The notes under the pieces were generated by a model that saw only the letters and a list, made by a program, of their open reading frames with translations, had not been told where the DNA came from and ran no database searches. Below, piece by piece: positions 20,041 through 33,820 of a stretch of DNA of 64,000 nucleotides (the first letter of the stretch is position 1; every line of letters starts with the position of its first letter). This DNA is from Methanofollis fontis (lineage in GTDB: Archaea > Halobacteriota > Methanomicrobia > Methanomicrobiales > Methanofollaceae), in contig NZ_PGCL01000002.1 in the NCBI RefSeq assembly GCF_004297185.1, positions 372,001 through 436,000 on the forward strand, read 5' to 3'. Made by a program: the position numbers and the translations under genes.

Positions 20041-20114
20041 TGATGATCTGTGGGCGGCGGCCATTGATTAAGATTCTGTATCACAGATTGTGGCACATCG
20101 TAACACCAGCCAGA

Positions 20115-20125
20115 TGATTTTTTAT
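20115..20125 (+). promoter_or_regulatory. TATA box of the membrane-protein/Trk gene set
   Basis: The sequence gattttttatcg is centred about 24 nt before the ATG at 20143 and fits an archaeal TATA box with a leaderless start. Confidence 0.45.
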
Positions 20126-20142
20126 CGATCCCTCCCCCATGG

Positions 20143-21102
20143 ATGGGCATGGGATCAGGTTTCTACGCATTTGACGCTATCGATGACGCCATTTCCCGTA
20201 CCAAAACCCTTCTCTGGCCGTTCAGGGCCGGGGTGTGGTTCAGGCTGGCGTTGATCGCCCTGTTTGTCGGGGGGTTTGGCGGCGGATTCAATATCTTCTC
20301 CTATAATCTGGATTCCGGTCCGGACATGGGGATGCCGCTCGATCCGGGGGTTTCGATGGCCCTGGTTCTGGCGCTTATCGGGATCGTTCTCCTGCTGGCG
20401 CTGATCTTCCTGATGATCGGATCGATCCTGCAGTTTGTATTCGTCGACTGCCTGTCCTCAGGCACGGTCTCCCTCTCCCGCACCTTCGGGCTCAGGAGTG
20501 GTAAGGGGCTGCGCCTCTTTCTCTTCCAGTTTGGTCTCATGCTGCTGATATTCGCCGCCATTGCCCTGCTTGCATTGATCCTCATCTTTCCGGCCGGGAT
20601 GACAGGGACGCCCAATGTGGTGTTCTTCCTTCTGATGCTCCCGGTGCTGCTGGTGCTCGCCATCATTGTCGGAGTGGTGATGATGCTCACCATCGATTTC
20701 GTGGTGCCGGTGATGATCCGGGACGATTGCGGAGTCATCACCGGATGGCGCCGGGTGTGGGGATTCGTGCGGGCGGACCTGAAGAACACTGCCGTCTATG
20801 TGGTCTTCAAGTTCGTTCTCGGCATTGTGGTGGGCCTGATCGTGCTCCTTCTCGCCCTGCTTGTGCTTGCGGTGATCGCCGTCCCGCTGCTCGTTGTGGG
20901 TGCGGCGGCGATGTACATCATGAATGGTGCGGTCCTGCCGTTCTACCTGCTGCTCCTTGGCATCGGGGTGCTCATCGCCATCCCGTTCCTCCTTCTCGTT
21001 CAGGTGCCCTTCGTCACCTTCTTCAGGTACTATTCCCTGGGTGTGCTCTCGTCCTTCACGCCCGACTACGACCTCCTCCCTCCCGGAGAGGCATCGGCCT
21101 GA
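20143..21102 (+). CDS. Multi-pass membrane protein of unknown function
   Basis: 319 residues with about six hydrophobic segments, including a start-proximal one (FRLALIALFVGGFGGGF), MALVLALIGIVLLLALIFLMIG, and four more up to residue 300. Between them lie short soluble loops such as CLSSGTVSLSRTFGLRSGKGLRLF and RDDCGVITGWRRVWGFVRADLKN, the second typical of membrane proteins annotated as glycerophosphodiesterase-like membrane domain or DUF7544 family. No catalytic motif is evident. It lies 45 bases before trkH on the same strand, so it may be co-transcribed. An ATG at 20149 is an alternative start. Confidence 0.7.
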   Translation: MGMGSGFYAFDAIDDAISRTKTLLWPFRAGVWFRLALIALFVGGFGGGFNIFSYNLDSGPDMGMPLDPGVSMALVLALIGIVLLLALIFLMIGSILQFVFVDCLSSGTVSLSRTFGLRSGKGLRLFLFQFGLMLLIFAAIALLALILIFPAGMTGTPNVVFFLLMLPVLLVLAIIVGVVMMLTIDFVVPVMIRDDCGVITGWRRVWGFVRADLKNTAVYVVFKFVLGIVVGLIVLLLALLVLAVIAVPLLVVGAAAMYIMNGAVLPFYLLLLGIGVLIAIPFLLLVQVPFVTFFRYYSLGVLSSFTPDYDLLPPGEASA

Positions 21103-21147
21103 GGGTGGTGAAGGTTATCTATGTCCCGGGCCCATAGGGGGTCCGGG

Positions 21148-22584
21148 ATGTATGAACTCGTCTCTCCGGTCTCTTTGCCGGCGGTGCTGCGATATTGCGG
21201 CGGCACCTTCGTCGGCATCGGGATCGTCCTCCTTGTGCCGGCGGCTGCCGCAGTCTTCTTCGGGGAGACGGCGGCGGGCATGGCGGCGCTGGGGTGTGCC
21301 CTGCTCTCGTTTGCCGCAGGCGCCGCTCTCCTCCGGCATTTTCCAGAGACCGATCTCGAGTGGAAGGAGGCGCTGGTGCTTGCCGCCATCGCCTTTCCTG
21401 CCGCCTCCCTTCTCTGCACTCTGCCGCTTTCCCTTTCCTCCGGGATGAATGGTATCGACGCTTTTTTTGAGTCGGTCTCCGGCCTGACCACGACCGGTCT
21501 CTCGGTCGCCCCCGTGGGAGTGCCGGCATTTTTCCTGTTCTTCCGTTCCTGGCTCCAGTGGGTGGGGGGGATCGGTATCGTGGTGCTGGTGCTCACCTTC
21601 GTCGTCGGGCCGGGGACGAGCGCCCTGCGCCTCTATACTGCCTCGATCGGCGACGAAGAACGGCTCCGCCCGACGATTGGCGCCACCGTGCGTCTGCTCT
21701 TCTCCGTCTATCTGGCGCTGACGGTCGTCGCCTTCCTGTTGCTTCTGTTCGGTGGGATGGAGCCCTTCGATGCCCTCTGTCATGCATTGAGCGGGATATC
21801 GACCGGTGGCTTTTCCACGCGCCCCGAGAGCGTTGCGGCCTTCGGGGGGGTGCTGCCCGCCCTGGTGATCCTCTCCTCCCTGATGGGCGCCGTCAGTATC
21901 GGTCTCTACCCAGCACTCCTGAAGGATCCGCTCCGTCTTCTGAGCGATATCCAGGTGCAGGTGTTTGCCGTGATCGCTGTCGCCGGTTTTGTGCTGCTCC
22001 TGTTTATCCTGGGCGGTGCCATGCCGCTCCCCGAAGCCGTTCCGGTTGCGGCGTTTCAGGTGCTCTCGGCCCTGACCACCTCCGGGTTCTCGACGATCGA
22101 TATCGGTGCCCTCCCGCCTCCGGCAAAGGCGGTGCTCTCCCTGCTGATGTGCATCGGGGGTTCGATCGGATCGACGGCGGGCGGGATCAAGATCCTCCGC
22201 CTTATCCTCGTGCTTGCGCTGATCCGCTACATCTTTCTCCGCTTCTCCCTCCCGAGGGAGGCGGTGGTCCCCTTCCGGGTGGGCGGGCACCTGATGGAAT
22301 GGCCGGATGTCTATGCCGTCGTCGGGTTCATATTCTGCTATATCGGCTGCATTATCCTCTCGGCGCTGGTGTTCATGCTCGCCGGCGCCGGCATGGAGGA
22401 TGCCGTCTTCGAGGTGGCAAGCGCCCTTGGCACCGTGGGGCTTTCGACCGGGCTGACCGGGCCAGACCTTCCCGTGCTGCTGAAAGCGGTGCTCTGCATC
22501 GATATGTTGATGGGCCGGATCGAGGTGATGCCCTTCCTGGTGATGTTCATGCCCAGGACATGGATCCGCCCTGGGAGGGATTGA
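21148..22584 (+). CDS. trkH: Trk-type potassium uptake protein TrkH
   Basis: The membrane channel subunit for K+ uptake. Four selectivity-filter-like repeats are readable: SGLTTTGLS, SGISTGGFS, SALTTSGFS and SALGTVGLS, each followed by membrane helices, in the MPM-repeat layout of TrkH/KtrB. About 478 residues. I take the ATG at 21148 because a G-rich site (GGGGTCCGGG) is directly upstream; an ATG 27 bases earlier is in frame. It is followed 34 bases later by trkA, the regulatory partner. Confidence 0.95.
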   Translation: MYELVSPVSLPAVLRYCGGTFVGIGIVLLVPAAAAVFFGETAAGMAALGCALLSFAAGAALLRHFPETDLEWKEALVLAAIAFPAASLLCTLPLSLSSGMNGIDAFFESVSGLTTTGLSVAPVGVPAFFLFFRSWLQWVGGIGIVVLVLTFVVGPGTSALRLYTASIGDEERLRPTIGATVRLLFSVYLALTVVAFLLLLFGGMEPFDALCHALSGISTGGFSTRPESVAAFGGVLPALVILSSLMGAVSIGLYPALLKDPLRLLSDIQVQVFAVIAVAGFVLLLFILGGAMPLPEAVPVAAFQVLSALTTSGFSTIDIGALPPPAKAVLSLLMCIGGSIGSTAGGIKILRLILVLALIRYIFLRFSLPREAVVPFRVGGHLMEWPDVYAVVGFIFCYIGCIILSALVFMLAGAGMEDAVFEVASALGTVGLSTGLTGPDLPVLLKAVLCIDMLMGRIEVMPFLVMFMPRTWIRPGRD

Positions 22585-22618
22585 TACGTGTGCACGTCCA
22601 TCAGCGGTGTGATCAGGT

Positions 22619-23278
22619 ATGCGGGTGATCATTGTCGGGGCGAGCACGCTCGGGCGCGGGCTTGCGGAGAAGCTGATCGGGCTCGGCACCCAGGTGGTGG
22701 TGGTCGAGCGGGACGGGGAGCGGGCGGAGGACATTGCGGAGAACCTGGACTGTTCGGTGATCCACGGCGAGGGGACCAGGCCCGACATCCTGGATAAGGC
22801 AGGAATTGAGGATGCGGATGCGGTGGTGGCGTGCACTGACCACGACCAGGACAACATCCTGATCGGGCTGATCGCCCGCGGCGCCGGGGTGCGGGAGACA
22901 ATTTTACGGACGGACGATGCCCAGTTTCTCGTTGTGGCCAAGAGACTCGGGTTTCATCATGTGCTCAACCCGCCGCAGGCGACGGCGGAGATCATCGCCG
23001 ATGCCCTGCGCGGGGTGGACACCATCGAACTCTCCACGCTGGTGCGCGGCGACATCCGTTTTCTCGGTGTGATCGCCCGGGGAGAGGTGGTGGGAAAACG
23101 AATTTCCGAGGTTATAATGCCAAAACAATCCTCGATTGTCGGGATGTACCGGGGGCAGGAGTTCCTGTTTGCCGCGGCCGATCCCGCCATCGAGGAGGGT
23201 GATGAGGTGCTTGTCGTCACCGCCGAGGAGCATTCCGGAGAGATCGATGCCCTCCTCACGACCCCTGCCCCTGGATAA
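22619..23278 (+). CDS. trkA: Trk potassium system regulatory protein TrkA
   Basis: A peripheral nucleotide-binding subunit that gates TrkH. The 219 residues contain one RCK_N Rossmann domain (MRVIIVGASTLGRGLAEKL, with an acidic residue in VVVVERD) and one RCK_C domain at about 135-215 (DIRFLGVIARGEVVGKRISE... EGDEVLVVTAEEH). This is the single-module form found in many archaea, half the size of E. coli TrkA. Directly downstream of trkH. Confidence 0.95.
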   Translation: MRVIIVGASTLGRGLAEKLIGLGTQVVVVERDGERAEDIAENLDCSVIHGEGTRPDILDKAGIEDADAVVACTDHDQDNILIGLIARGAGVRETILRTDDAQFLVVAKRLGFHHVLNPPQATAEIIADALRGVDTIELSTLVRGDIRFLGVIARGEVVGKRISEVIMPKQSSIVGMYRGQEFLFAAADPAIEEGDEVLVVTAEEHSGEIDALLTTPAPG

Positions 23279-23280
23279 TG

Positions 23281-23288
23281 CTTATATG
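23281..23288 (+). promoter_or_regulatory. TATA box of the tRNA-Gly gene
   Basis: cttatatg lies directly after the trkA stop and about 44 bases before the mature tRNA 5' end. A transcript would start near 23310, leaving a short 5' leader for RNase P. Confidence 0.6.
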
Positions 23289-23328
23289 GAAGAAGTGCGA
23301 ATATTGTAGAGCACTGCGGTAATGCAGG

Positions 23329-23400
23329 GCGCCGATAGTGTAGTGGTCATCACTAGGCGTTGCCAACGCCTAAACCCGGGTTCGAGTCCCGGTCGGCGCA
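23329..23400 (+). tRNA. tRNA-Gly (anticodon GCC)
   Basis: A full cloverleaf can be folded by eye. The acceptor arms GCGCCGA (23329-23335) and TCGGCGC (23393-23399) pair in all seven positions. The D arm closes with GTG/CAC. The anticodon stem AGGCG/CGCCT encloses loop TTGCCAA, giving anticodon GCC at 23362-23364 and decoding GGC. The T arm CCGGG-TTCGAGT-CCCGG is perfect. The discriminator base is A23400. CCA is not encoded and no intron is visible. It marks the left edge of the AT-rich island. Confidence 0.97.
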
Positions 23401-23408
23401 CTCAGAAC

Positions 23409-23425
23409 ACAGGTTCGATTCCTGT
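23409..23425 (+). other. Orphan T-arm-like sequence, possible tRNA remnant
   Basis: ACAGG-TTCGATT-CCTGT forms a perfect five-pair T-stem and seven-base T-loop with the invariant TTC and A, nine bases after tRNA-Gly. No acceptor, D or anticodon arm accompanies it. It may be the 3' remnant of a second tRNA lost or displaced by an insertion, or a chance hairpin acting with the following T tract as terminator. Confidence 0.4.
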
Positions 23426-23428
23426 ATC

Positions 23429-23435
23429 TTTTTTT
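23429..23435 (+). terminator. T7 tract after tRNA-Gly
   Basis: Seven T residues follow the T-arm-like hairpin and would end the tRNA transcript in the archaeal manner. Confidence 0.55.
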
Positions 23436-23903
23436 CGCGCATCTTCAGAAATATTGACGCTTCCGCCTCTGACAGATTCCTCTTTTCACGGTGTTCGCCA
23501 TCTATACGCATGGCGTTCTATCGCGCATGCCATATCCGGAGAGCAGATCGCCGACGGGGTGTGGGGGGCGCTGAATAATGCGATGATCCGGGGGCGGAGT
23601 GGCCATCGGGGGGCGTGGCACAACGAACTGATATCAGGTGATGTCAGGCGCTTGAACAGATTTCAATCAGGGGTGTTGCGGGGGTTGGGATCTCGGGGGT
23701 CCGGGCACCAGTTTGGACAACACGATAGAAGGGTGATTTCAAAGACGGGTAATGACATTTTGCCACCTTTGAAGAGCCCTCATAATGGCTTTTGAATAGA
23801 ATTGGCAGTTGAAACCCACTCAAATGCTTCTCCTTGTCGCCAAATATGATCCAAAATTCTAGAGAAATATTGACCGATCAAAACGATTGGTTAAATTATG
23901 CTG
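23436..23903. other. Gene-poor boundary of the island
   Basis: About 470 bases without a convincing gene. Base composition changes from G+C-rich (to about 23710) to AT-rich (after about 23730), which marks the approximate island edge. Open frames here lack ribosome sites and recognisable protein sequence. No integrase, insertion sequence or direct copy of the tRNA 3' end was seen. Confidence 0.5.
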
Positions 23904-24350
23904 TTAATGATTATGCATGGCTGTTTTTACCATTGTGCTAAATATTGTTTCAAATTTGGTAGAATAAGGAGCATCACTATGTGGGGTATGATGGCAATAC
24001 ATGGTGCCATTATTATCGATGCTCATAAGACCAATATTTGATCTTGAGAACCGTTCTGTCTGTGATAAAGCAGATTTAACATGGTCGTGATCCATAATCA
24101 CGTAAGACTGATTAACAAATGCCTTGTAGCGAAAAGCTTGAATAAGCGCTCTTTTCCAGTTTGTTAGCTTCGCTTCAAATGCATAGGAGATCATTTTTTC
24201 ATTATCATTTTTTACAACTACGATATCAGGAATACCAAATAGACCTTTAACTTCTTCTTTAACAAGGCTCGGGCCAGGACTAGTTAGATCTCTTATATAA
24301 TCACTTTTTATGATGATCTCAACCATTTCTTTTTCGCTTGTAAAGGCCAT
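23904..24350 (-). CDS. Small PD-(D/E)XK nuclease-fold protein
   Basis: 148 residues with the layout of a single-domain restriction-endonuclease-like fold. It has a leading helix with Glu32-Glu33, the motif Pro41-Asp42 on a strand (GIPDIVVV), and E59-A60-K61 on the next strand (YAFEAKL). A helix with Q71 and a basic patch follows (RALIQAFRYKAFVNQSYVIMD). This order, E...PD...ExK...QxxxY, is typical of metal-dependent nucleases of the PD-(D/E)XK superfamily. Start: the ATG at 24350 lies one base after the upstream stop, with GGATGGAG ahead of it; earlier in-frame ATGs overlap the previous gene. It is the last gene of the three-gene island operon. The target could be DNA or RNA. Catalytic residues look intact. 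Confidence 0.75.
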   Translation of the reverse strand: MAFTSEKEMVEIIIKSDYIRDLTSPGPSLVKEEVKGLFGIPDIVVVKNDNEKMISYAFEAKLTNWKRALIQAFRYKAFVNQSYVIMDHDHVKSALSQTERFSRSNIGLMSIDNNGTMYCHHTPHSDAPYSTKFETIFSTMVKTAMHNH

Positions 24351-24351
24351 A

Positions 24352-25545
24352 TCATCTGCTCCATCCTTGATCATTCCCAAATAAGTTTGCGACGGTCAAC
24401 CATCCTGAAAGATATGATCCGAATACCCCTAATTCGAAACCAGATTCCCTTAATTTTGAATATTCATCAATTGCTGATGTAATTATATTACAGATTTCAC
24501 AATATCTATCTTCGCTCTCCAAACTACTAATGTTCCTTAATTGTTTTGATCCTTCAATGAAAAAATGCATATAGGGCTCTGGTTTATTAAAATGCCATCC
24601 ATATTTTGGATCGAGTACAAGATCCAAATATTCATTTTGAGCTACAGATTGTATATAACTTGGACATTTTGTATTCATTAATTCAACATAAGGATGTTCA
24701 ATCCAATCAAGTAATTTTGGTATGTACAACCGAGGGGTTGGGGGCCTTTTTATTGTTCTCTCTTCTTGATTAACAAAATTTTTTGAATTGTAAATCCGAG
24801 TGTTCTCAAATGAACCTATTGTAACAATCGAAGGATTGGCCAATGATAGTAGTATCGCCTCTGTATTTAAATAACCAAGAATGACCTTAAGTTCATTTTG
24901 AGATAGTGCGTTTATAAAATTTAACAAATGGTATAAATAATTCCCATCGTTTATTTGCTTATTTCGAGAATCTAACTCTGTTATAAGATAGATTCCAGTT
25001 ATCCCTTCTATTCCAGTAATCCAATTAAGTAGTTCCGAAGAGTAGGTAACGTCTTTGATCATATGGCTATTCAATATTAATTCAACAAATATTTCCTTAC
25101 GACTTCCTGAATTATCAATAGCAGTTAAAAAGGGTGTTATATAATGGTCATTTAGTATCTCGGTATATCTAAAGACTGGTGGCAATTCCCCAGAATACCG
25201 TGTAGGAATTACAAAACATCTGAAATCATTTTGATCTTGAAATGAAACACAATTACTTGCGCAAATTGATGAATAACCGGGATATTGTTCTGTTTCAAAT
25301 CCTCCGGGCATAATTTCACAAGGATAAAAGTCATATGTTGCCATTTTTTTACGAACTGCAAGAGCATTCATCAATTGTGGATCAAAAATCGCTTTCTCTT
25401 TTATGTTATTATCTAATTTTTCAACTTTTGCTTGATCCATACTCCTTGGTGAGATAATCACGCCATCACCAGTGTTATCTTCCAAAATACTCTGAATATT
25501 CCAATTCTCTCTAAATCCGAGTTGATGATAGATTTCAAACCTCAT
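24352..25545 (-). CDS. Large protein of unknown function in the kinase-nuclease operon
   Basis: 397 residues, soluble, with no signal peptide or membrane segment. I do not recognise the family. The first 65 residues contain GDGVIISPRSM and KEKAIFDPQLM. The middle has alternating strands and helices (IFVELILNSHMI; GIYLITELDSR; LKVILGYLNTEAILLSLANPSIVTIGSF) that would suit a TIM-barrel-like core, a weak inference from pattern only. C-terminal cysteines lie in YCEICNII. The start is firm: GGAGGTG stands five bases before the ATG at 25545, and that ATG overlaps the kinase stop as ATGA. The tight coupling to a kinase and a nuclease suggests it is the sensor or effector core of one system. Confidence 0.7.
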   Translation of the reverse strand: MRFEIYHQLGFRENWNIQSILEDNTGDGVIISPRSMDQAKVEKLDNNIKEKAIFDPQLMNALAVRKKMATYDFYPCEIMPGGFETEQYPGYSSICASNCVSFQDQNDFRCFVIPTRYSGELPPVFRYTEILNDHYITPFLTAIDNSGSRKEIFVELILNSHMIKDVTYSSELLNWITGIEGITGIYLITELDSRNKQINDGNYLYHLLNFINALSQNELKVILGYLNTEAILLSLANPSIVTIGSFENTRIYNSKNFVNQEERTIKRPPTPRLYIPKLLDWIEHPYVELMNTKCPSYIQSVAQNEYLDLVLDPKYGWHFNKPEPYMHFFIEGSKQLRNISSLESEDRYCEICNIITSAIDEYSKLRESGFELGVFGSYLSGWLTVANLFGNDQGWSR

Positions 25546-26411
25546 TGATACACCTCCAAACAAGAATCAATTTTATCTAAAATCATATTTGAAAAACGAA
25601 AACGTTGATACGGCTTTGGACTAAGTAATTGCGAAGCTAATGGAAAAATTGGAGACAATACAGGTTCATTAAAAATAGAAGTATACCAGTTTCCATTAAT
25701 AATATTATGTGGAATAGAGTTACCCCCCACAAGACTCGGATCAAATGGGTGAGTGCCCTTCAAAAGTAATTGTACTAAAATTATGCCAAGATTGTATTGG
25801 TCAGTCCTCTTATCGATCCTTTTCTTATCATAGTGTAATTGTTCGGGAGCTGCATATAATTTTGAACAAGGGCCACCCAAGAGCGTTTCTGTTATTGATG
25901 TACTATCCAGACTTCTAGCAATACCTAAGTCAATAATTGTTGGTAAATTGCTTTCCTTAATCAAAATATTATCTGGTTTAAGATCACGATGAACAACATT
26001 CATCTTCCATATTACATTTAACCCTATTACCAGATTTTTAATCAAATTCAATGCTTCAGAGGGTTTTTTAAATGTATCCATACAATGGGATAATGGTGTT
26101 GAGTCAATGAATTCTTCAATGATTATATATCTGCCATCAGGCAATTTTTTAAAACAAAAATTTTTTGGATAATATTGGGAATCAATGTCTTGTAAAATGT
26201 TGATTTCTCTCTCTATTCTTTCAATGTCCCATCCATTCGGGTTATCTGGTGTTTTATATCTGCCAACTTTTAGGGCAACAACCCCATATTCTGGATGGTC
26301 AAAACGATAAACAATTCTTTGACCTCCCTTATAGATCAATTCTGGGTTATTATAATGATCCAGTATGTCGCGACATTGTTCTTCTTCCAATTTTAACACC
26401 TGATCAGACAA
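25542..26411 (-). CDS. Eukaryotic-type Ser/Thr protein kinase
   Basis: 289 residues, a stand-alone kinase domain with no membrane anchor. It has a glycine-loop-like GGQRIVY (29-35), the ATP lysine K48 in VALKVG, and a candidate helix-C Glu (E69). The catalytic loop HRDLKPDN (141-148) is complete. The metal motif is D161-L-G (DLG rather than DFG), and APE lies at 188-190. All residues needed for phosphotransfer appear present, so it should be active. It begins the island operon and its stop overlaps the next start. The start given is TTG at 26411; a GTG at 26399 is an alternative and neither has a convincing ribosome site. In bacteria and archaea such kinases occur in stress signalling and in several phage-defence systems. 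Confidence 0.9.
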   Translation of the reverse strand: MSDQVLKLEEEQCRDILDHYNNPELIYKGGQRIVYRFDHPEYGVVALKVGRYKTPDNPNGWDIERIEREINILQDIDSQYYPKNFCFKKLPDGRYIIIEEFIDSTPLSHCMDTFKKPSEALNLIKNLVIGLNVIWKMNVVHRDLKPDNILIKESNLPTIIDLGIARSLDSTSITETLLGGPCSKLYAAPEQLHYDKKRIDKRTDQYNLGIILVQLLLKGTHPFDPSLVGGNSIPHNIINGNWYTSIFNEPVLSPIFPLASQLLSPKPYQRFRFSNMILDKIDSCLEVYQ

Positions 26412-26429
26412 ATAATGATATCCACAATG

Positions 26430-26465
26430 TTACTATGATCTATAGAAAACAGATAATATTTACGA
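26430..26465 (-). promoter_or_regulatory. AT-rich promoter candidate of the island operon
   Basis: On the minus strand, taaatattatc and ctatagatc lie 20-55 nt before the kinase start and resemble archaeal TATA boxes. In this AT-rich DNA such matches are expected by chance, so support is weak. Confidence 0.3.
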
Positions 26466-26648
26466 TTTGATTTCCTGAACTGCCCTTCAATATTCTCCAA
26501 ACCGTCACTTTGCTCGCCAATGCCCCCCCAAATCTGAAAAACCCACATTTCCCCCTCTTCATCGTTCTCCCCCGCTACCTGGACCTCCCTCCCACCCCCC
26601 AGCACAAAACCGCAACCGACAAAAGTGAAGCAGGAGAGAGGGGTAATC

Positions 26649-26873
26649 ATGGACGTCTCGATCCCCCAGCTCCGCGACCTCCTCTTCCCGATGGAATGGT
26701 TCGTCCGCTTCTATATTCTGGCCTTCATCGTCTGGCTCGCAGAACCGATGTATCCTGGCAGCCAGTTCTCCTACCTGCTCCTGATCTACTTCCTCTGGTT
26801 CGTCATGGCGATCACCTTCGCCTGGCAGGTGATCGTCACGGTGCGGTTTGTCAGAGACCACCGCCGGGAGTGA
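26649..26873 (+). CDS. Small two-helix membrane protein
   Basis: 74 residues with two hydrophobic segments, WFVRFYILAFIVWLAEPMY and FSYLLLIYFLWFVMAITFAWQV, and a basic tail ending RDHRRE. The ATG at 26649 has GGGG five bases upstream. G+C-rich codon use differs from the neighbouring island, so it belongs to the core side or to a different insert. Function unknown; it has no partner gene on its strand. Confidence 0.6.
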   Translation: MDVSIPQLRDLLFPMEWFVRFYILAFIVWLAEPMYPGSQFSYLLLIYFLWFVMAITFAWQVIVTVRFVRDHRRE

Positions 26874-27066
26874 CCGGGAATAAAAATAGAGGAAAGAGGC
26901 GACTCGGGAACCTGCTAGAGATGATACTGCCATACGCCTGTTTGCCTCTGCCGTTTCGCTGTTTAAGGGCGTCCATGCCGAGATGCGGGGTGCAGGCACG
27001 ATATCATTCGAAATAGATACTCTATTCACCTTCCCTCCCTCTGATTCTGAAGGTGCAGGATAGATT

Positions 27067-27690
27067 TCATATTCGAATTACCGTTATTGGCTTTGAATCG
27101 TACTCAATTCCTTCCCGAGTGGCCATTCTGACAAAAACATGATATTTCTCACCTGATTTGGAAATTCTTTTCTCACCGATTTGGATACCATGAATTACCC
27201 ATGTTCCATCTGGACTGGCAACTGCATCCAGTCTTTGCTTCCATTCCTTATTGAGTGGATCGATCACATATGCAGACAATACTGCGCCGGGAACTGCTCC
27301 ATGGCCCTGAAGGTCGATAATCAGGCTGGTTTCTGCATTGTTCTCCGGATATGTGATCTCAAAGGGTGGCATGAAATAGGCAGCACAAGCAGTAACCAAT
27401 ATAAAGGCCAAAACAAACTCAGCGGCTATCTGAAACAGGTTCCAGCCTTTAATCCTTCTGTCGGTTGGCGATTTTATTTTTTGCCATGTATTGGTAAATG
27501 TTTGAGGATTGTGAAACCATATCAGGATAATTATCGATATCACCGTAAAAAAAATAACTCCACAATGAAATGGGATATATATTGCCGTCTGGCCAATAAT
27601 GACACATGTTGCCGCAAAGAGCATATTCAGCAGCACTTCGATCGAAAATAAGAAAAATGATTCACTTGGAGTGAATGGCAGAGCGATCAC
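27067..27690 (-). CDS. Membrane protein with exposed C-terminal domain
   Basis: 207 residues. Three hydrophobic segments lie in the first 110 residues (FFLFSIEVLLNMLFAATCVII; PFHCGVIFFTVISIIILIWF; LFQIAAEFVLAFILVTACAAYF). A beta-rich domain of about 95 residues follows, with DAVASPDGTWVIHGIQIGEK, similar in layout to the C-terminal half of the lipoprotein before it (strands around a GxW motif). The start overlaps the lipoprotein stop by four bases, so the two are coupled. Family unknown. Codon use is less G+C-rich than the core. Confidence 0.65.
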   Translation of the reverse strand: MIALPFTPSESFFLFSIEVLLNMLFAATCVIIGQTAIYIPFHCGVIFFTVISIIILIWFHNPQTFTNTWQKIKSPTDRRIKGWNLFQIAAEFVLAFILVTACAAYFMPPFEITYPENNAETSLIIDLQGHGAVPGAVLSAYVIDPLNKEWKQRLDAVASPDGTWVIHGIQIGEKRISKSGEKYHVFVRMATREGIEYDSKPITVIRI

Positions 27691-28250
27691 CCCAGAGTTA
27701 CGTATACCGGAATACTTCCATCATATCCAGAAATGTTATATATCTGCTCCCCTTCTTCAAGTTCATTGTTACTTACGATCGCCTGAACAATAAATTCCGT
27801 TCCTGCTGGTGTGACATTGTCACCAAAATATGCTTCGACAAACCAGTTCCCCGAGGGTAAAACAGTTGTCTGAGGCTGAACCCACCATCCTGAATCACCG
27901 AGAAGTGGTTTGACAAGAACATAGAGATTTAATCCAGAATCATCCAGTTCCTCGACTGTTCCTTTTATGGTATCCGTATTATTCACCTTGTCGCCATCTC
28001 TCGGTGAAGTGATAACCACGTATCCAGGAGAGTGTCCTTGAGTCTCGGTTATGGACGTAGTTGGTGGCATTGTTGTAGGCGTTTCCGTTGTCGTCACTGC
28101 CGTTTCCTGTGTAGTTTGCGCAGTGGTAGAAGTGGGCGGTTGAGTGGGGGTCGGTGTTACATCAACAGTCCCACCAGTACAACCTCCGCACAGAACTAAG
28201 GCTACAACAAGGGATAGCACAACAAATACAGTAAAATTTATTCTTTTCAT
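27687..28250 (-). CDS. Secreted lipoprotein with Thr-rich stalk
   Basis: 187 residues. A signal peptide with Lys-Arg, a hydrophobic core and a lipobox (VLCGGC) is followed by a Thr/Pro-rich low-complexity stretch of about 45 residues, probably an extended or glycosylated stalk. A beta-sandwich-like domain follows (YVVITSPRDGDKVNNTDTIKGTVEE), similar to Ig-like or Big domains on archaeal surface proteins. The ATG at 28250 is backed by GGAGGG seven bases upstream. It is coupled by a four-base overlap to the next membrane protein and probably acts with it at the cell surface. Confidence 0.75.
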   Translation of the reverse strand: MKRINFTVFVVLSLVVALVLCGGCTGGTVDVTPTPTQPPTSTTAQTTQETAVTTTETPTTMPPTTSITETQGHSPGYVVITSPRDGDKVNNTDTIKGTVEELDDSGLNLYVLVKPLLGDSGWWVQPQTTVLPSGNWFVEAYFGDNVTPAGTEFIVQAIVSNNELEEGEQIYNISGYDGSIPVYVTLG

Positions 28251-28361
28251 AATTGTGTCCCTCCGATGTGGGCAATTTAGTGGCTTGCAGGATATAAATG
28301 TATGTGTATTTATTGCCGGACATATTAATTGCACATCACAACGGAGAATATCCGTCTACCG

Positions 28362-28398
28362 CCCCCTCCCCTCTCCTCATGTGGTGGGGGGGAGGGGG
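28362..28398. terminator. G/C hairpin between aminotransferase and lipoprotein
   Basis: CCCCCTCCCC at 28362-28371 and GGGGAGGGGG at 28389-28398 form a perfect ten-pair stem with a 17-base loop. It lies about 36-73 bases beyond the aminotransferase stop. It may end that transcript or protect its 3' end, though no T run follows on the minus strand. Confidence 0.35.
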
Positions 28399-28434
28399 TC
28401 ATTTGCCACCCATTGAAATGATCCAGGGGACCCC

Positions 28435-29766
28435 CTATCTCTTCTTCACACCCTCAACAAAACGCCGGATCGCCGTGATCCCATCGACCATGCGGGGTGC
28501 GGCATCGTTCACGAACGCCACCTCATCAAGACTGCTCCTCGGGGGATCGCTCCGGTAGTGTTCGAGCGCCGCCGCCCCGTCATAGTCCACGCAGGCGATC
28601 CTGAGGGAGAGGTTCTCCTGCGGGAGCATGATCGCCTCTCCCCCCACCGTGGCGATATGGTGGGGATGGGCGAGCATGGCGGCCGAGAGGTCGTCTGCAC
28701 CGGCGATACCGGCCGACTCCAGGCGGTCCCTGAGGGCGTTGAAGTCCGCAAGGAAATAGAACCCGCCTTCCGGTTGTGTCGCCCCCACCCCCTTGATCAT
28801 CGCCGTCGCCCTGGACAGGTAGCGGCACATGATCGAGTGGATCGATCTGATGTTTCGCATATACTCCTCGATCTCGACGCTCGGCGAATAGGCGGTGACG
28901 GCGGCGTGCTGGACCGGCGCCGCCACCGAGGTGCGGATCGTCGCCGCCACCTTCGTGAGGTCGTCAAGGAGTTCGTCGGGTGCGTCTGCCGGCAGGATGC
29001 AGGTGCCCAGACGGTATCCGGCGGCCGAACGGTCCTTCGAGAGACCGCCGGTGACGAAGGTGCCCTCCGGGTACATCACCCCCATCGAGACGAAATGCTC
29101 GAAGGCGTAGGTGGTCAGGGCATAGATCTCATCGGCGAGCACCAGGCAGCCGTAGGTCCTGCAGACCTCGGCGATCTCCTCCAGTTCCCGCTGGCTGTAG
29201 AGGGCGCCGGTGGGGTTGTTGGGGTTGTTGAGCACCAGCAGATGGCGGCGGTCCGGGTTCTTCGCCAGCAGTGCGGCCAGATCCCTTGGATCGATCCGAT
29301 AACCGCGTTCACGCTCCAGGGCCAGACTCACATACGATTTTCCGAGCAGTCTGAGTATCGGCGCATACCCCACCCACGAGGGGGAGGGGATGATCACCGT
29401 GGCGTCCAGCATGGAGAAGAGCATGAACATCAATTCCTTGGTGCCGTTCCCGACAACCACCCGCTCCGGGCCGGTAGAAATAGCGAAATGCCGGCCGTAA
29501 AAATTCGAAATTGCTTCCCTCAGTTCTGGTATTCCTGCTGCATCCGTATACTCCCCCCGAACCGCTCCCGAGGTCAGCGCCCGCACCATGGGTGGCGGCA
29601 CCGGGAACGGCGACTGGCCGAACGCAAAATTATAAAACCGGGCGTCGCAGCCAATCCTGCTGCACGCCTCCCTCTGCCTGTTGATCATCAGACCCACCCT
29701 GAGGTTCTCGGGCATGGTGATCGCCCCCATGTGGGGGTCTGTCCGTAACACCTGGACCTGCTTCAT
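28435..29766 (-). CDS. PLP-dependent aminotransferase, class I/II
   Basis: 443 residues of the aspartate/aromatic aminotransferase fold. Visible features are GEYTDAAGIPELREAI, LNNPNNPTGALYSQRELEEIAE, VLADEIYALTTY, and the PLP lysine in GGLSKDRSAAGYRLG. The C-terminal Arg that binds the substrate carboxylate is within LSLRIACVD. Substrate cannot be named from sequence; an amino acid/2-oxo acid pair is expected. The ATG at 29766 follows a GGGGACGG site. It lies 68 bases after the CfbE/thiamine-enzyme chimera on the same strand and may share its transcript. Confidence 0.88.
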   Translation of the reverse strand: MKQVQVLRTDPHMGAITMPENLRVGLMINRQREACSRIGCDARFYNFAFGQSPFPVPPPMVRALTSGAVRGEYTDAAGIPELREAISNFYGRHFAISTGPERVVVGNGTKELMFMLFSMLDATVIIPSPSWVGYAPILRLLGKSYVSLALERERGYRIDPRDLAALLAKNPDRRHLLVLNNPNNPTGALYSQRELEEIAEVCRTYGCLVLADEIYALTTYAFEHFVSMGVMYPEGTFVTGGLSKDRSAAGYRLGTCILPADAPDELLDDLTKVAATIRTSVAAPVQHAAVTAYSPSVEIEEYMRNIRSIHSIMCRYLSRATAMIKGVGATQPEGGFYFLADFNALRDRLESAGIAGADDLSAAMLAHPHHIATVGGEAIMLPQENLSLRIACVDYDGAAALEHYRSDPPRSSLDEVAFVNDAAPRMVDGITAIRRFVEGVKKR

Positions 29767-29834
29767 TGCGACCGTCCCCTTCAGGCCCCCCATAGACGGG
29801 AACGGTAATCAAGGTATCCCGGGGAGGGGGAGGG

Positions 29835-31214
29835 TTAGAAACGTTCGGGATCGGTCTCGATGTCCACGATCGCCGGAACGCCGCTCTTCAAGGCCTGTAC
29901 AACCGCCTCCGCGCACTCCTCGGGACGCTCCACCCGGAACCCCACCCCGCCGCAGGAGCGTGCATATGCCGCAAAATCGGGATTGGTCAGGCCCGTCCCG
30001 AAGTTCGGGTAGTGCTCCATCCGCTGCTCCACCCGGATCATCCCGAGTTCGTGGTTGTTCAGGAGGATCACCGTGACCGGGAGATCGTACTGTACGGCAG
30101 TCAGGAACTCGGCCATCGACATCGAAAAACCGCCGTCGCCGGTGATGCAGACCGACGGGCGCTCAGGATAGGCCAGCCGCGCCGCAATCGCCGCCGGCAG
30201 CGCAAACCCCATCGTGGCAAGATAACCGGACATCACGAACCGCTGACCCGGTTTCATCAGGAAGTTCCGGCCGAACCACCAGCCGTTCTCCCCGACATCC
30301 ACCGATATCACGGTGTCCTCGGGCAGCACCCGGGAGAGCACCGCCATGATGTAGGGGGGCCGCAGAGGCACGGCCGCCGCATCCGCCTCGCCCGCCGTCT
30401 GCGCCCGCCACTCCTCCCGATCCTTCTGCACCCGCTCCCTGGTCTCCGTCCCCTCCCTTTCCCGCAGGGGCTCCCGGTAGGCCCGGAGGCTGAGAAGCGG
30501 GTGTTCGAACATACCCTCGATCCCGCCATAGCAGTAGGAGCAGCGCTCCTCCTCGATGACGGCGATCTCGTCGGCCGCCACTGCCCCCTGTAACCGCATG
30601 CCCGGCGGGACAAGCGCCTCTGGTGCATTCGCAAGGGAGCGGACCTTTGCTTCGAACGCCCGCCGCTGTCCGCCGGCGATCGGGTAGTCTCCGGCAGAGG
30701 TGAGCACAGCAAGGTCGCCGGCACCGCTCACACCCAGCGACTCCTCGATCACGCACCATCCGCCAATACGGGTTGCCTCCACCGCCGCCGACAGCGCCGA
30801 GGCAGGGGTGATGGAGCGGCGCCAGAGCGTCTCGCCACCCGGATACCGGACTGTGCCGCGTGAGGTGTGGAGTATGCCCGGTCCCGGCATCACCGATGCC
30901 AGCGCCGCCGCGGTTGTGGTCTTCCCCTGCATTCCGGTGATCTCGATCATCGGTGAGGGGCGATCCCCGGCTAAAAGCATGCGGACGGCCTCATGGTGGG
31001 TGATCACCACCTGGGCCCGCCCGAGGAGGGGGTGGGCGGGGTTGAGATGCACCGGGGCGGCGACGAGGTCGTAGTCCCGCTCTGCCGCCTCCTCCGCCGT
31101 GATCCCGCCGTCCCCCCGATAGACGTCAACGGCATCCACCTCATGCCCCTTTTCGGCCAGTGCCGCTGCCAGCAGGGCACCGCCGTGGATTGTATCGAGG
31201 ACGAGAATTCTCAT
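29835..31214 (-). CDS. Apparent fusion of CfbE-like Mur ligase N-part with thiamine-diphosphate enzyme C-half
   Basis: 459 residues in one open frame. Residues 1 to about 250 look like CfbE, the Mur-ligase-like coenzyme F430 synthase: LVLDTIHGGALLAAAL at the start, ATP loop G94-MQGKTT-100, and CSYCYGGIEGMFEHPLLSLRAYREPL near the end, where the last ligase domain should begin. Residues about 256-459 look like the C-terminal domain of pyruvate-oxidase or acetolactate-synthase-type enzymes: VDVGENGWWFGRNF, GYLATMGFALPAAI, and the diphosphate motif G359-D-G with N386-N387. The missing parts are the C-terminal ligase domain of CfbE and the first two domains of the thiamine enzyme. It starts one base after cfbA. 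A true deletion, a strain-specific fusion or an assembly join would all look like this; neither half should work normally. Confidence 0.75.
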   Translation of the reverse strand: MRILVLDTIHGGALLAAALAEKGHEVDAVDVYRGDGGITAEEAAERDYDLVAAPVHLNPAHPLLGRAQVVITHHEAVRMLLAGDRPSPMIEITGMQGKTTTAAALASVMPGPGILHTSRGTVRYPGGETLWRRSITPASALSAAVEATRIGGWCVIEESLGVSGAGDLAVLTSAGDYPIAGGQRRAFEAKVRSLANAPEALVPPGMRLQGAVAADEIAVIEEERCSYCYGGIEGMFEHPLLSLRAYREPLREREGTETRERVQKDREEWRAQTAGEADAAAVPLRPPYIMAVLSRVLPEDTVISVDVGENGWWFGRNFLMKPGQRFVMSGYLATMGFALPAAIAARLAYPERPSVCITGDGGFSMSMAEFLTAVQYDLPVTVILLNNHELGMIRVEQRMEHYPNFGTGLTNPDFAAYARSCGGVGFRVERPEECAEAVVQALKSGVPAIVDIETDPERF

Positions 31215-31215
31215 C

Positions 31216-31620
31216 TCAGGCGTTCTGCTCGATCGCCATCCTGGCGTTCTTGACCATCAGGTCAGCGAGGAGGGGGTCGCCCCCGATCGGATCGGCATAG
31301 ACGAGGGGGATTGAGCCCGAATTGTGTGCAAATGTGCCCTTCTTCTCGCCCTCCGGGAGACCGAGGAGTTCGGGGATGTCCTTGAGGATGTGGACGCCCT
31401 TAGCAAGGAAAAGCGGCACGACGACGAGAAGGTCGATGTCGTCATGTTTGAAGGAGTTCAGGACATCGGTGACAGTCGGTTCGTTCATGGACATGAAACC
31501 CGGCTTTACGAGGAACTCCGGGTGCTGCTCTGCGATGAGCGCCGCCGTGTTCTCGATGAGCTCCTTGTTATAAGGGAGTTTGCTGCCGTGGCCGACGAGT
31601 AACAATCCTTTGCGTGCCAT
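31216..31620 (-). CDS. cfbA: Sirohydrochlorin nickel/cobalt chelatase CfbA (small CbiX)
   Basis: Inserts Ni(II) (or Co(II)) into sirohydrochlorin, first step of F430 synthesis and of cobamide synthesis in archaea. The 134 residues have the short CbiXS form: LLLVGHGSKLPYNKE with the metal-binding His near the start, and VVPLFLAKGVHILKDIPE with the second His. A TATA-like cttttatgatcg lies about 28 nt before the ATG, suggesting a leaderless transcript. The following gene starts two bases after its stop. Supplied by precursors from the hem/SUMT operon 11 kb away. Confidence 0.95.
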   Translation of the reverse strand: MARKGLLLVGHGSKLPYNKELIENTAALIAEQHPEFLVKPGFMSMNEPTVTDVLNSFKHDDIDLLVVVPLFLAKGVHILKDIPELLGLPEGEKKGTFAHNSGSIPLVYADPIGGDPLLADLMVKNARMAIEQNA

Positions 31621-31887: not shown

Positions 31888-33027
31888 ATGAATGATTCCT
31901 TAAAGCGCTGTGGACTCATCATCAATGGACAGGCGGTCAGGACGCCAATCGCCATCGCCTCAATGGCCGGGGTGGTGGATGCCTCCTATGTGCTCGCCCG
32001 CAAAGATCATATTGGAGCCGCATTTATCGGCGGTTATTCCATCGACGAAAAAACGATAGCGGCAAGCCGGGAGATGGCCGCAGAAGGGCGGACCGAGTTT
32101 CTGTACGATGATCCGGTGGCGGCGCTGCAGGAGCAGGTGGACGCCCTCAGGGAGAGCGGGGTGGTCATCGGCCTGAACCTGCGTGGAAGCACCCCCGAAT
32201 CATATACGGCGATCGCCTCAGCGATCGGGAACGGGGTGATCTATGAGATTGACGCCCATTGCCGCCAGCCCGCCATGATCGCCGCCGGTTGTGGCGAGGC
32301 GCTGCTGAACGAACCGCACCGACTTGCAGAGACGATCCGAGCCCTGAAGACCCTTGATGTGACGGTATCAGTGAAGATCCGGGCCGGTGTGGCGCCGGAC
32401 GACCGCCATCTTGCCCGCCTGCTCTGGAGGGCCGGGGCGGATATCATCCATGTGGACCTGATGGACTTCGGCCATTCCCGTCTCCGCCAGATCAGGAACG
32501 CCTGCCCCCTTGTTCTCATCGCCAACAACTCCATCACCTCCTTTGACCGTGCGATGGAGATGTTCTCCCATGGTGCCGATATGGTCTCGCTTGCCCGCCG
32601 GTCGGACGAGCGGACACTCGCCGGACTCGATGCCGCCATACAGCGGAAGGAAGAGGAGACAGGCTGGTACAATGCACCCAAGCAGCTCTGCAGGGGGGGC
32701 GATGTCCGCGCCCTCACCTTCTGCTGCCTGCCGGTGAAGCACTGCCCACTCATCCCCTTCCTGGAGCGGATCGGTCTTTCAAAGGAGGAATATATGCACA
32801 TCAAGACGGAGGCAGTGAAGGGCACGCCCCTTGAGAAGGGGAAGATCACCTGTTTCCAGTCACTTGCATGGTGCTGCAAGTCTTCCTCCCCCTGCATGCT
32901 CAGGGAGGTCGCCCTGCAGCGCGAGGCCGGGATCACCACCAGGGAGTATATGCAGGAGAAACGCCGCCTTTCCGAGCGGATCATGGAACGGGTGTATGAT
33001 GCAGTGCCGGACGATGACGCGGACTGA
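31888..33027 (+). CDS. Methanogenesis marker protein 9
   Basis: 379 residues. The N-terminal 240 residues form a TIM barrel related to dihydrouridine synthases (PIAIASMAGVVDASYV; SVKIRAGVAPDDRHLARLLWRAGADIIHVDLMDFG). The C-terminal Cys-rich methanogenesis marker domain 9 includes LTFCCLPVKHCPLIPFLE and CFQSLAWCCKSSSPCMLREVAL. Found in methanogens; the reaction is not known to me. The cysteines could hold an Fe-S cluster. The 3' end overlaps the CitG-like gene by 14 bases, so this is the first gene of a coupled trio. Confidence 0.88.
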   Translation: MNDSLKRCGLIINGQAVRTPIAIASMAGVVDASYVLARKDHIGAAFIGGYSIDEKTIAASREMAAEGRTEFLYDDPVAALQEQVDALRESGVVIGLNLRGSTPESYTAIASAIGNGVIYEIDAHCRQPAMIAAGCGEALLNEPHRLAETIRALKTLDVTVSVKIRAGVAPDDRHLARLLWRAGADIIHVDLMDFGHSRLRQIRNACPLVLIANNSITSFDRAMEMFSHGADMVSLARRSDERTLAGLDAAIQRKEEETGWYNAPKQLCRGGDVRALTFCCLPVKHCPLIPFLERIGLSKEEYMHIKTEAVKGTPLEKGKITCFQSLAWCCKSSSPCMLREVALQREAGITTREYMQEKRRLSERIMERVYDAVPDDDAD

Positions 33028-33820
33028 GGCAGCGCAGCTGGCGATGGTGCTGGAGGTCACGGCCTCCCCAAAACCAGGGAATGTGGACCGGGGGCATGAT
33101 TATCCAGATACCCGTCTCGAACATTTTCTTGCATCCGCCGTGTTTGCTCGTTGCGCCTTTGAGCATGCGGAGGCGGGAGGGAGCGGACTCGGCAGCCTGA
33201 TCGAGGAGGCGGTGCTGGACACCAGCTGCCATTCAGGCGGAAACACCCATTTCGGCGCCTTCATCCTGCTGATGCCACTCGTCTCGGGCGGGAGTATCGA
33301 TGGAGCAATGCGGACGGTGGCTGAAACCACGGTCGAGGATGCCGTCGCATTTTACCGGGCATTTTCGGCGACGGCGGTGCGGGTGCTGGAAAAAGACGAG
33401 ATCGACGTGAACGATCCCGCTGCATTGACCATCCTCAGGGAGCGGAATATGAACCTCTACGACGTGATGGCCTATTCGTCGGAGCGTGATATGGTGGCGA
33501 GGGAGTGGACGAACGGTTTTGCACTCTGCCGGGAGGCGGCCGACCTCCTCGTTTCATATGGGCCGGGAAGGGAGGCAATCGTCCGGACCTTCCTCGACCT
33601 GCTCGCCTCCTACCCCGACACCTTCATCGCAAAGAAACACGGCGCCGCCGTCGCTGAGGAGACCATGATGCGAGCGAGGGAGGTGCAGGCCGGGAGGGTT
33701 GCCCTCCAGGCGTTCGACGAGGAGTGCCTGGCCCGCGGGATCAATCCGGGGTCGCTTGCCGACATCATGATCGCCGGGATCTATCTCGCCCTGCTGGAGG
33801 AGTGGCGATGGGACTGCTGA
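33014..33820 (+). CDS. CitG/MdcB-like triphosphoribosyl-dephospho-CoA synthase family protein
   Basis: 268 residues. Family signatures are EVTASPKPGNVDRGHDYPDT near the start and SCHSGGNTHFGAFILLMPL, ending with PGSLADIMIAGIYLALLE. In bacteria CitG makes the prosthetic group of citrate lyase, but archaeal members occur without citrate lyase and, with DUF447, turn up in tetrahydromethanopterin-linked gene sets of methylotrophs. A ribosyl-transfer step in C1-carrier synthesis is therefore an inference. The ATG at 33014 lies inside the end of marker protein 9. Confidence 0.85.
   Translation: MTRTEAAQLAMVLEVTASPKPGNVDRGHDYPDTRLEHFLASAVFARCAFEHAEAGGSGLGSLIEEAVLDTSCHSGGNTHFGAFILLMPLVSGGSIDGAMRTVAETTVEDAVAFYRAFSATAVRVLEKDEIDVNDPAALTILRERNMNLYDVMAYSSERDMVAREWTNGFALCREAADLLVSYGPGREAIVRTFLDLLASYPDTFIAKKHGAAVAEETMMRAREVQAGRVALQAFDEECLARGINPGSLADIMIAGIYLALLEEWRWDC

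What the first reader, a model, noticed from the sequence alone, without database searches (positions are those of the whole stretch)
29835..31214. CfbE-like ligase fused in frame to half of a thiamine-diphosphate enzyme
Seen: one open frame whose first 250 residues match an F430-synthesis Mur-ligase-like protein following cfbA, and whose last 200 match the diphosphate-binding domain of an acetolactate-synthase-type enzyme. The parts that should lie between them, and the usual cfbB-D genes, are absent here. Inference: a deletion or an assembly join fused two distant genes near 30440-30465. If real, the methanogen needs another cfbE elsewhere.
Basis: partly seen in the sequence, partly recalled or inferred. 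Interest (0 to 1): 0.75.

Follow-up and report, generated by a model that had tools for sequence, protein, structure and literature searches.

The report
Assembly misjoin mimicking a gene fusion
The apparent fusion of a coenzyme-F430 ligase with half of a thiamine-diphosphate enzyme is almost certainly an assembly error in a draft Methanofollis genome: the missing half of the ligase sits at the very start of the same contig, overlapping the false junction by exactly one 127-base assembly word.

Summary
The reading frame is real in the assembly: minus strand, window 31214→29835, 459 aa. Residues 1-251 are CfbE and the rest is the C-terminal domain of an acetolactate-synthase/pyruvate-oxidase-type ThDP enzyme. 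It does not look like a real gene. The window is contig C2:372001-436000 of a 22-contig Methanofollis draft. C2 itself begins with 127 bases identical to window 30588-30462. It then diverges into the missing CfbE C-terminal half, followed by cfbD and cfbB. Most other readable contig ends also share exactly 127 bases with another end, so 127 is the assembly word length. Joining window 31214-30462 to C2:128 onward restores an open 390-aa CfbE (325 bits, cut-off 250) and the cfbA-E-D-B order, whose genes are contiguous in two relatives. All 11 other Methanofollis genomes have separate cfbE and ThDP genes. The N-terminal ~60% of the ThDP enzyme is absent from the readable assembly. A second fork of identical anatomy lies at the start of contig C3. 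So C2 was joined wrongly at 30461/30462, linking two loci 402 kb apart in inverted orientation. A full set of F430 genes is present. The finding is ordinary. A minority in-vivo inversion cannot be formally excluded without reads.

The parts
30462..31214 (-). N-terminal 251 codons of cfbE (coenzyme F430 synthase), true 5' part of an interrupted cfbE
   Evidence: NF033197 positions 1-218; 64-69% identity to cfbE of 11 Methanofollis genomes over residues 1-251
30462..30588 (-). 127-bp stretch identical to contig C2 bases 1-127, the k-mer overlap at the assembly fork
   Evidence: exact 127-base identity, then divergence; 127 is the overlap length at most readable contig ends of this assembly
30461..30462 (-). 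false junction (misjoin point)
29838..30461 (-). C-terminal ThDP-binding part of an acetolactate-synthase/pyruvate-oxidase-type enzyme; its N-terminal ~327 residues are missing from the readable assembly
   Evidence: TPP_enzyme_C E 4.7e-44; 71-75% identity to the C-terminal ~210 residues of intact relatives
31216..31620 (-). cfbA, sirohydrochlorin nickelochelatase, first gene of the true cfbA-E-D-B cluster
   Evidence: NF033198, 150.6 bits over cut-off 120
28435..29793 (-). class I/II aminotransferase, native downstream neighbour of the ThDP enzyme
   Evidence: PF00155; adjacent to the intact ThDP gene in relatives G001, G003, G004, G005, G006, G011

Best explanation
It is an assembly misjoin, not a gene. 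At a fork in a k=127 de Bruijn graph the assembler left the path cfbE-N to cfbE-C and followed a chimeric link from cfbE-N to the C-terminal part of the ThDP gene, so the 402-kb left part of contig C2 (bases 1-402,461) is attached backwards to the rest. The true sequence runs cfbA-cfbE(N) [window 31620 to 30462, minus strand], then C2:128 onward: cfbE(C)-cfbD-cfbB. The true upstream half of the ThDP gene fell into a gap or a withheld small contig. Shown: the 127-base overlap, the restored cfbE, synteny in relatives, absence of the fusion in relatives. Inferred: that a chimeric read or molecule next to a coverage gap produced the false link.
For: (1) C2:1-127 equals window 30588-30462 exactly and diverges at base 128. 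(2) The same 127-base overlap occurs at most other readable contig ends: C1/C5, C1/C8, C2/C4, C3/C7/C11, C5/C9/C11, C6/C9, C6/C12, C7/C10, C8/C12. (3) Because C2 begins with 127 bases of upstream cfbE followed by cfbE-C, the assembly itself holds the intact cfbE path. (4) The rejoined ORF is open, 390 aa, the length of relatives' CfbE (389-393), and scores 325.3 bits against NF033197 (cut-off 250) over positions 1-430, versus 225.7 for the fusion. (5) cfbD (497 bits) and cfbB (617 bits) follow at C2:564-3000. (6) In G004 and G011, C2:407k-403k and C2:1-4k form one contiguous locus (e.g. G004 1681747-1689843), while C2:387-402k matches a different locus (922-932 kb in G004). (7) 0 of 11 other Methanofollis genomes carry the fusion; all 37 loci returned from a collection of 84,980 species matched essentially only one parent. 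(8) The ThDP N-terminus is not in the readable genome. (9) An identical second fork: C3:1-127 equals C3:177296-177170 (minus), then runs into a truncated aldehyde dehydrogenase whose C-terminal part is missing.
Against: Reads and depth were not available, so a real minority rearrangement giving the same fork is not strictly excluded. The junction is in frame, but that has about a one-in-three chance anyway. The ThDP N-terminal half was not located; the sampled small contigs C13-C22 read as N and could not be searched, so the other side of the gap is unproven.
Confidence: 0.94

Rival explanations
1. A genuine inversion (about 402 kb) between cfbE and the ThDP gene exists in part of the sequenced population, and the assembly mixed the two arrangements.
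For: The join is in inverted orientation on one contig, and both the intact-cfbE path and the fusion path exist in the assembly.
Against: An inversion should leave the reciprocal ThDP-N/cfbE-C junction, but C2 begins with cfbE sequence and the ThDP N-terminus is nowhere readable. The second identical fork on C3 also lacks part of a gene, which fits gaps with chimeric links better.
Confidence: 0.05
2. A real, fixed fusion protein or deletion in this strain, either bifunctional or a broken cfbE with a second cfbE elsewhere.
For: The frame is open through the junction.
Against: No second complete cfbE exists in the readable genome, CfbE catalyses the last step of F430 synthesis (PMC7242693), and the fusion lacks the CfbE C-terminal part and the ThDP enzyme's N-terminal ~60%. 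No relative has it. The C2-start overlap shows that an intact path exists.
Confidence: 0.01

Closest known systems
CfbE, coenzyme F430 synthase (NCBIfam NF033197)
   Same: Residues 4-200 align to model positions 1-218, including the GMQGKTT nucleotide-binding loop; preceded by cfbA as in relatives.
   Different: The fusion lacks model positions 244-430; these are at C2:20-541.
Acetolactate synthase / pyruvate oxidase-type ThDP enzymes (Pfam PF02775; intact Methanofollis homologue of 539 aa, best NCBIfam match PRK08611 pyruvate oxidase below cut-off)
   Same: Complete TPP_enzyme_C domain with a GDGG...NN motif; native downstream aminotransferase neighbour.
   Different: The N-terminal and middle domains (about residues 1-327) are missing.
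Chimeric contigs of short-read de Bruijn assemblies
   Same: Contig start repeats exactly k bases of an interior fork; two loci distant in relatives are joined; part of a gene is missing at the join; recurs at C3:1.
   Different: Nothing distinctive; the in-frame reading is coincidence.

Membership tests
CfbE (NF033197 equivalog) | Score above curated cut-off (250 bits) over the full model | tested here: not met
   225.7 bits, positions 1-218 of 430. The rejoined sequence scores 325.3 bits, 1-430.
CfbE (NF033197 equivalog) | Genomic context with other cfb genes | tested here: met
   cfbA directly upstream. cfbD and cfbB follow the C-terminal half at C2:564-3000. The same genes are contiguous in this order in G004 and G011.
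ThDP enzyme of the acetolactate synthase type | C-terminal ThDP-binding domain | tested here: met
   PF02775 residues 306-452, positions 1-151 of 151
ThDP enzyme of the acetolactate synthase type | N-terminal (PYR) and middle domains in the same chain | tested here: not met
   Only the C-terminal Pfam domain is found. The N-terminal 327 residues have no close match in the readable genome; the only full-length relative is a 35% identical paralogue on C3.
Assembly misjoin at a de Bruijn fork | Contig end identical to interior by exactly the word length used elsewhere in the assembly | tested here: met
   127 bases; 127 at most other readable ends
Assembly misjoin at a de Bruijn fork | Junction absent from, or at anomalous depth in, the reads | not testable with these tools
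   No reads available

The most novel reading that the evidence does not exclude
A subpopulation of this Methanofollis strain carries a real, inverted rearrangement joining cfbE to the ThDP gene (and another at C3:1), so the assembly records structural variation within the culture rather than a technical chimera.
Probability: 0.04. Interest if true: 0.35.

Novelty: not a real feature. Interest (0 to 1): 0.06.

Why it matters
It matters as a correction. A 459-aa protein read here as a CfbE/ThDP fusion would be a false domain architecture, and this genome would wrongly appear to lack a complete cfbE and to carry a 402-kb inversion. The exact-k overlap at a contig end is a quick test for such false fusions in drafts.

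Tried and rejected
Second cfbE in the genome: none. Conserved fusion in relatives: none. ThDP N-terminus at another contig end: not found by protein search, by DNA search with the 127 bases after the junction, or by comparing genes around the ThDP locus of seven relatives with the contig ends and window. The conserved upstream gene of relatives (a member of a large paralogous family) gave only paralogues of at most 44% identity here, and another upstream gene of G003 lies at C2:333618, about 68 kb away, so the far side of the gap was not found. Idea that the gap joins C3:1 (aldehyde dehydrogenase) to the ThDP gene: no such pairing in relatives' loci. The small contigs C13-C22 contain N (those counted are N throughout) and were not pursued. 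Microhomology at the junction (perhaps CTGCGG, by comparison with relatives) could not be verified because the native ThDP sequence upstream is missing. A paper search for the organism's own assembly report gave no match that I could tie to this genome.

Full report
What is in the window. The ORF at 29835-31214 is on the minus strand and is open for 459 codons. Its first part matches CfbE only up to model position 218 of 430 and falls below the family cut-off (225.7 vs 250 bits). Its last part contains a complete TPP_enzyme_C domain. cfbA is immediately upstream.

Where the rest of cfbE is. The window is C2:372001-436000 of a 2.36-Mb, 22-contig genome whose named close relatives are Methanofollis. 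The CfbE model matches this genome in two pieces: positions 1-218 in the fusion and positions 244-430 at C2:20-541, the extreme start of the same contig. That second piece is followed by cfbD at C2:564-1616 and cfbB within C2:1462-3000. cfbC lies at C2:116229-117023. The F430 pathway genes are therefore all present. CfbE performs the final ring closure of F430 (PMC7242693).

The signature of the error. C2 bases 1-127 are identical to window 30588→30462 and diverge at the next base. Comparing the readable contig ends, most are shared with another contig by exactly 127 bases, the hallmark of a de Bruijn assembly with word length 127. C2's left end has no partner other than this interior site in the sequence compared. 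The contig start therefore says that upstream cfbE sequence continues into cfbE-C, while the contig interior says that the same sequence continues into the ThDP gene. The former restores an intact 390-aa cfbE with no stop (325.3 bits). The latter makes a protein lacking about a third of CfbE and about 60% of the ThDP enzyme.

Relatives. In 11 of 11 other Methanofollis genomes the CfbE half and the ThDP half lie at different places, each in its own frame. One of them, G001, has a single contig of 2,746,416 bp, the length reported for the complete M. aquaemaris genome (PMC9583781). In G004 and G011, C2:407k→403k and C2:1→4k match one contiguous locus with the same gene order, whereas C2:387-402k (ThDP C-terminus, aminotransferase and neighbours) matches a second locus far away. 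The left 402 kb of C2 is thus attached in the wrong orientation at window 30461/30462.

A second case. C3:1-127 is identical to C3:177296→177170 (a fasciclin-like gene, named from its sequence motif, not from a family search) and then switches at base 128 to an aldehyde dehydrogenase that is cut after profile position 127, with no other partial copy in the genome. The anatomy is the same: a 127-base fork, inverted orientation within the same contig, and a missing part of a gene. This recurrence favours chimeric links next to gaps as the cause (inference), rather than anything specific to cfbE.

What remains open. The ThDP gene's first ~327 codons were not found. They may be in a gap or in the small contigs that read as N. 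Without reads, a minority inversion in the culture cannot be strictly excluded, but the missing reciprocal junction argues against it.

Noticed in passing
G000 contig C3:1-127 and C3:177170-177296 (L037, L150): A second probable misjoin with the same anatomy: 127-base identity in inverted orientation, then a truncated aldehyde dehydrogenase (C3:120-491, minus) whose C-terminal part is missing from the readable assembly.
   Followed up: yes
window about 21100-28400: Relative to G004 and G011 this stretch is largely an insertion: the genes on either side (about 20104-21099 and 28438-29781) are about 1.7 kb apart in G004. It holds a protein-kinase-like ORF (25542-26411, minus) and a 403-aa ORF of unknown type (24352-25563, minus).
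   Followed up: no
G000:C2:117085-118429 (L002, L003): Two weak relatives of the CfbD model lie next to cfbC at C2:116229-117023, away from the cfbA-E-D-B cluster; possibly nitrogenase-like paralogues.
   Followed up: no
window 31888-33027 and 32831-33820: Divergent from cfbA: a methanogenesis-marker-9/dihydrouridine-synthase-like gene and a CitG-like triphosphoribosyl-dephospho-CoA synthase, in the same arrangement beside the cfb locus in G004 and G011.
   Followed up: partly
L005:520-2136 and relatives: The intact parent ThDP enzyme (about 540 aa, best but sub-cut-off match to pyruvate oxidase) is next to a class I/II aminotransferase in several Methanofollis genomes, with homologues in Methanomicrobiales MAGs; its substrate is not evident.
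   Followed up: no
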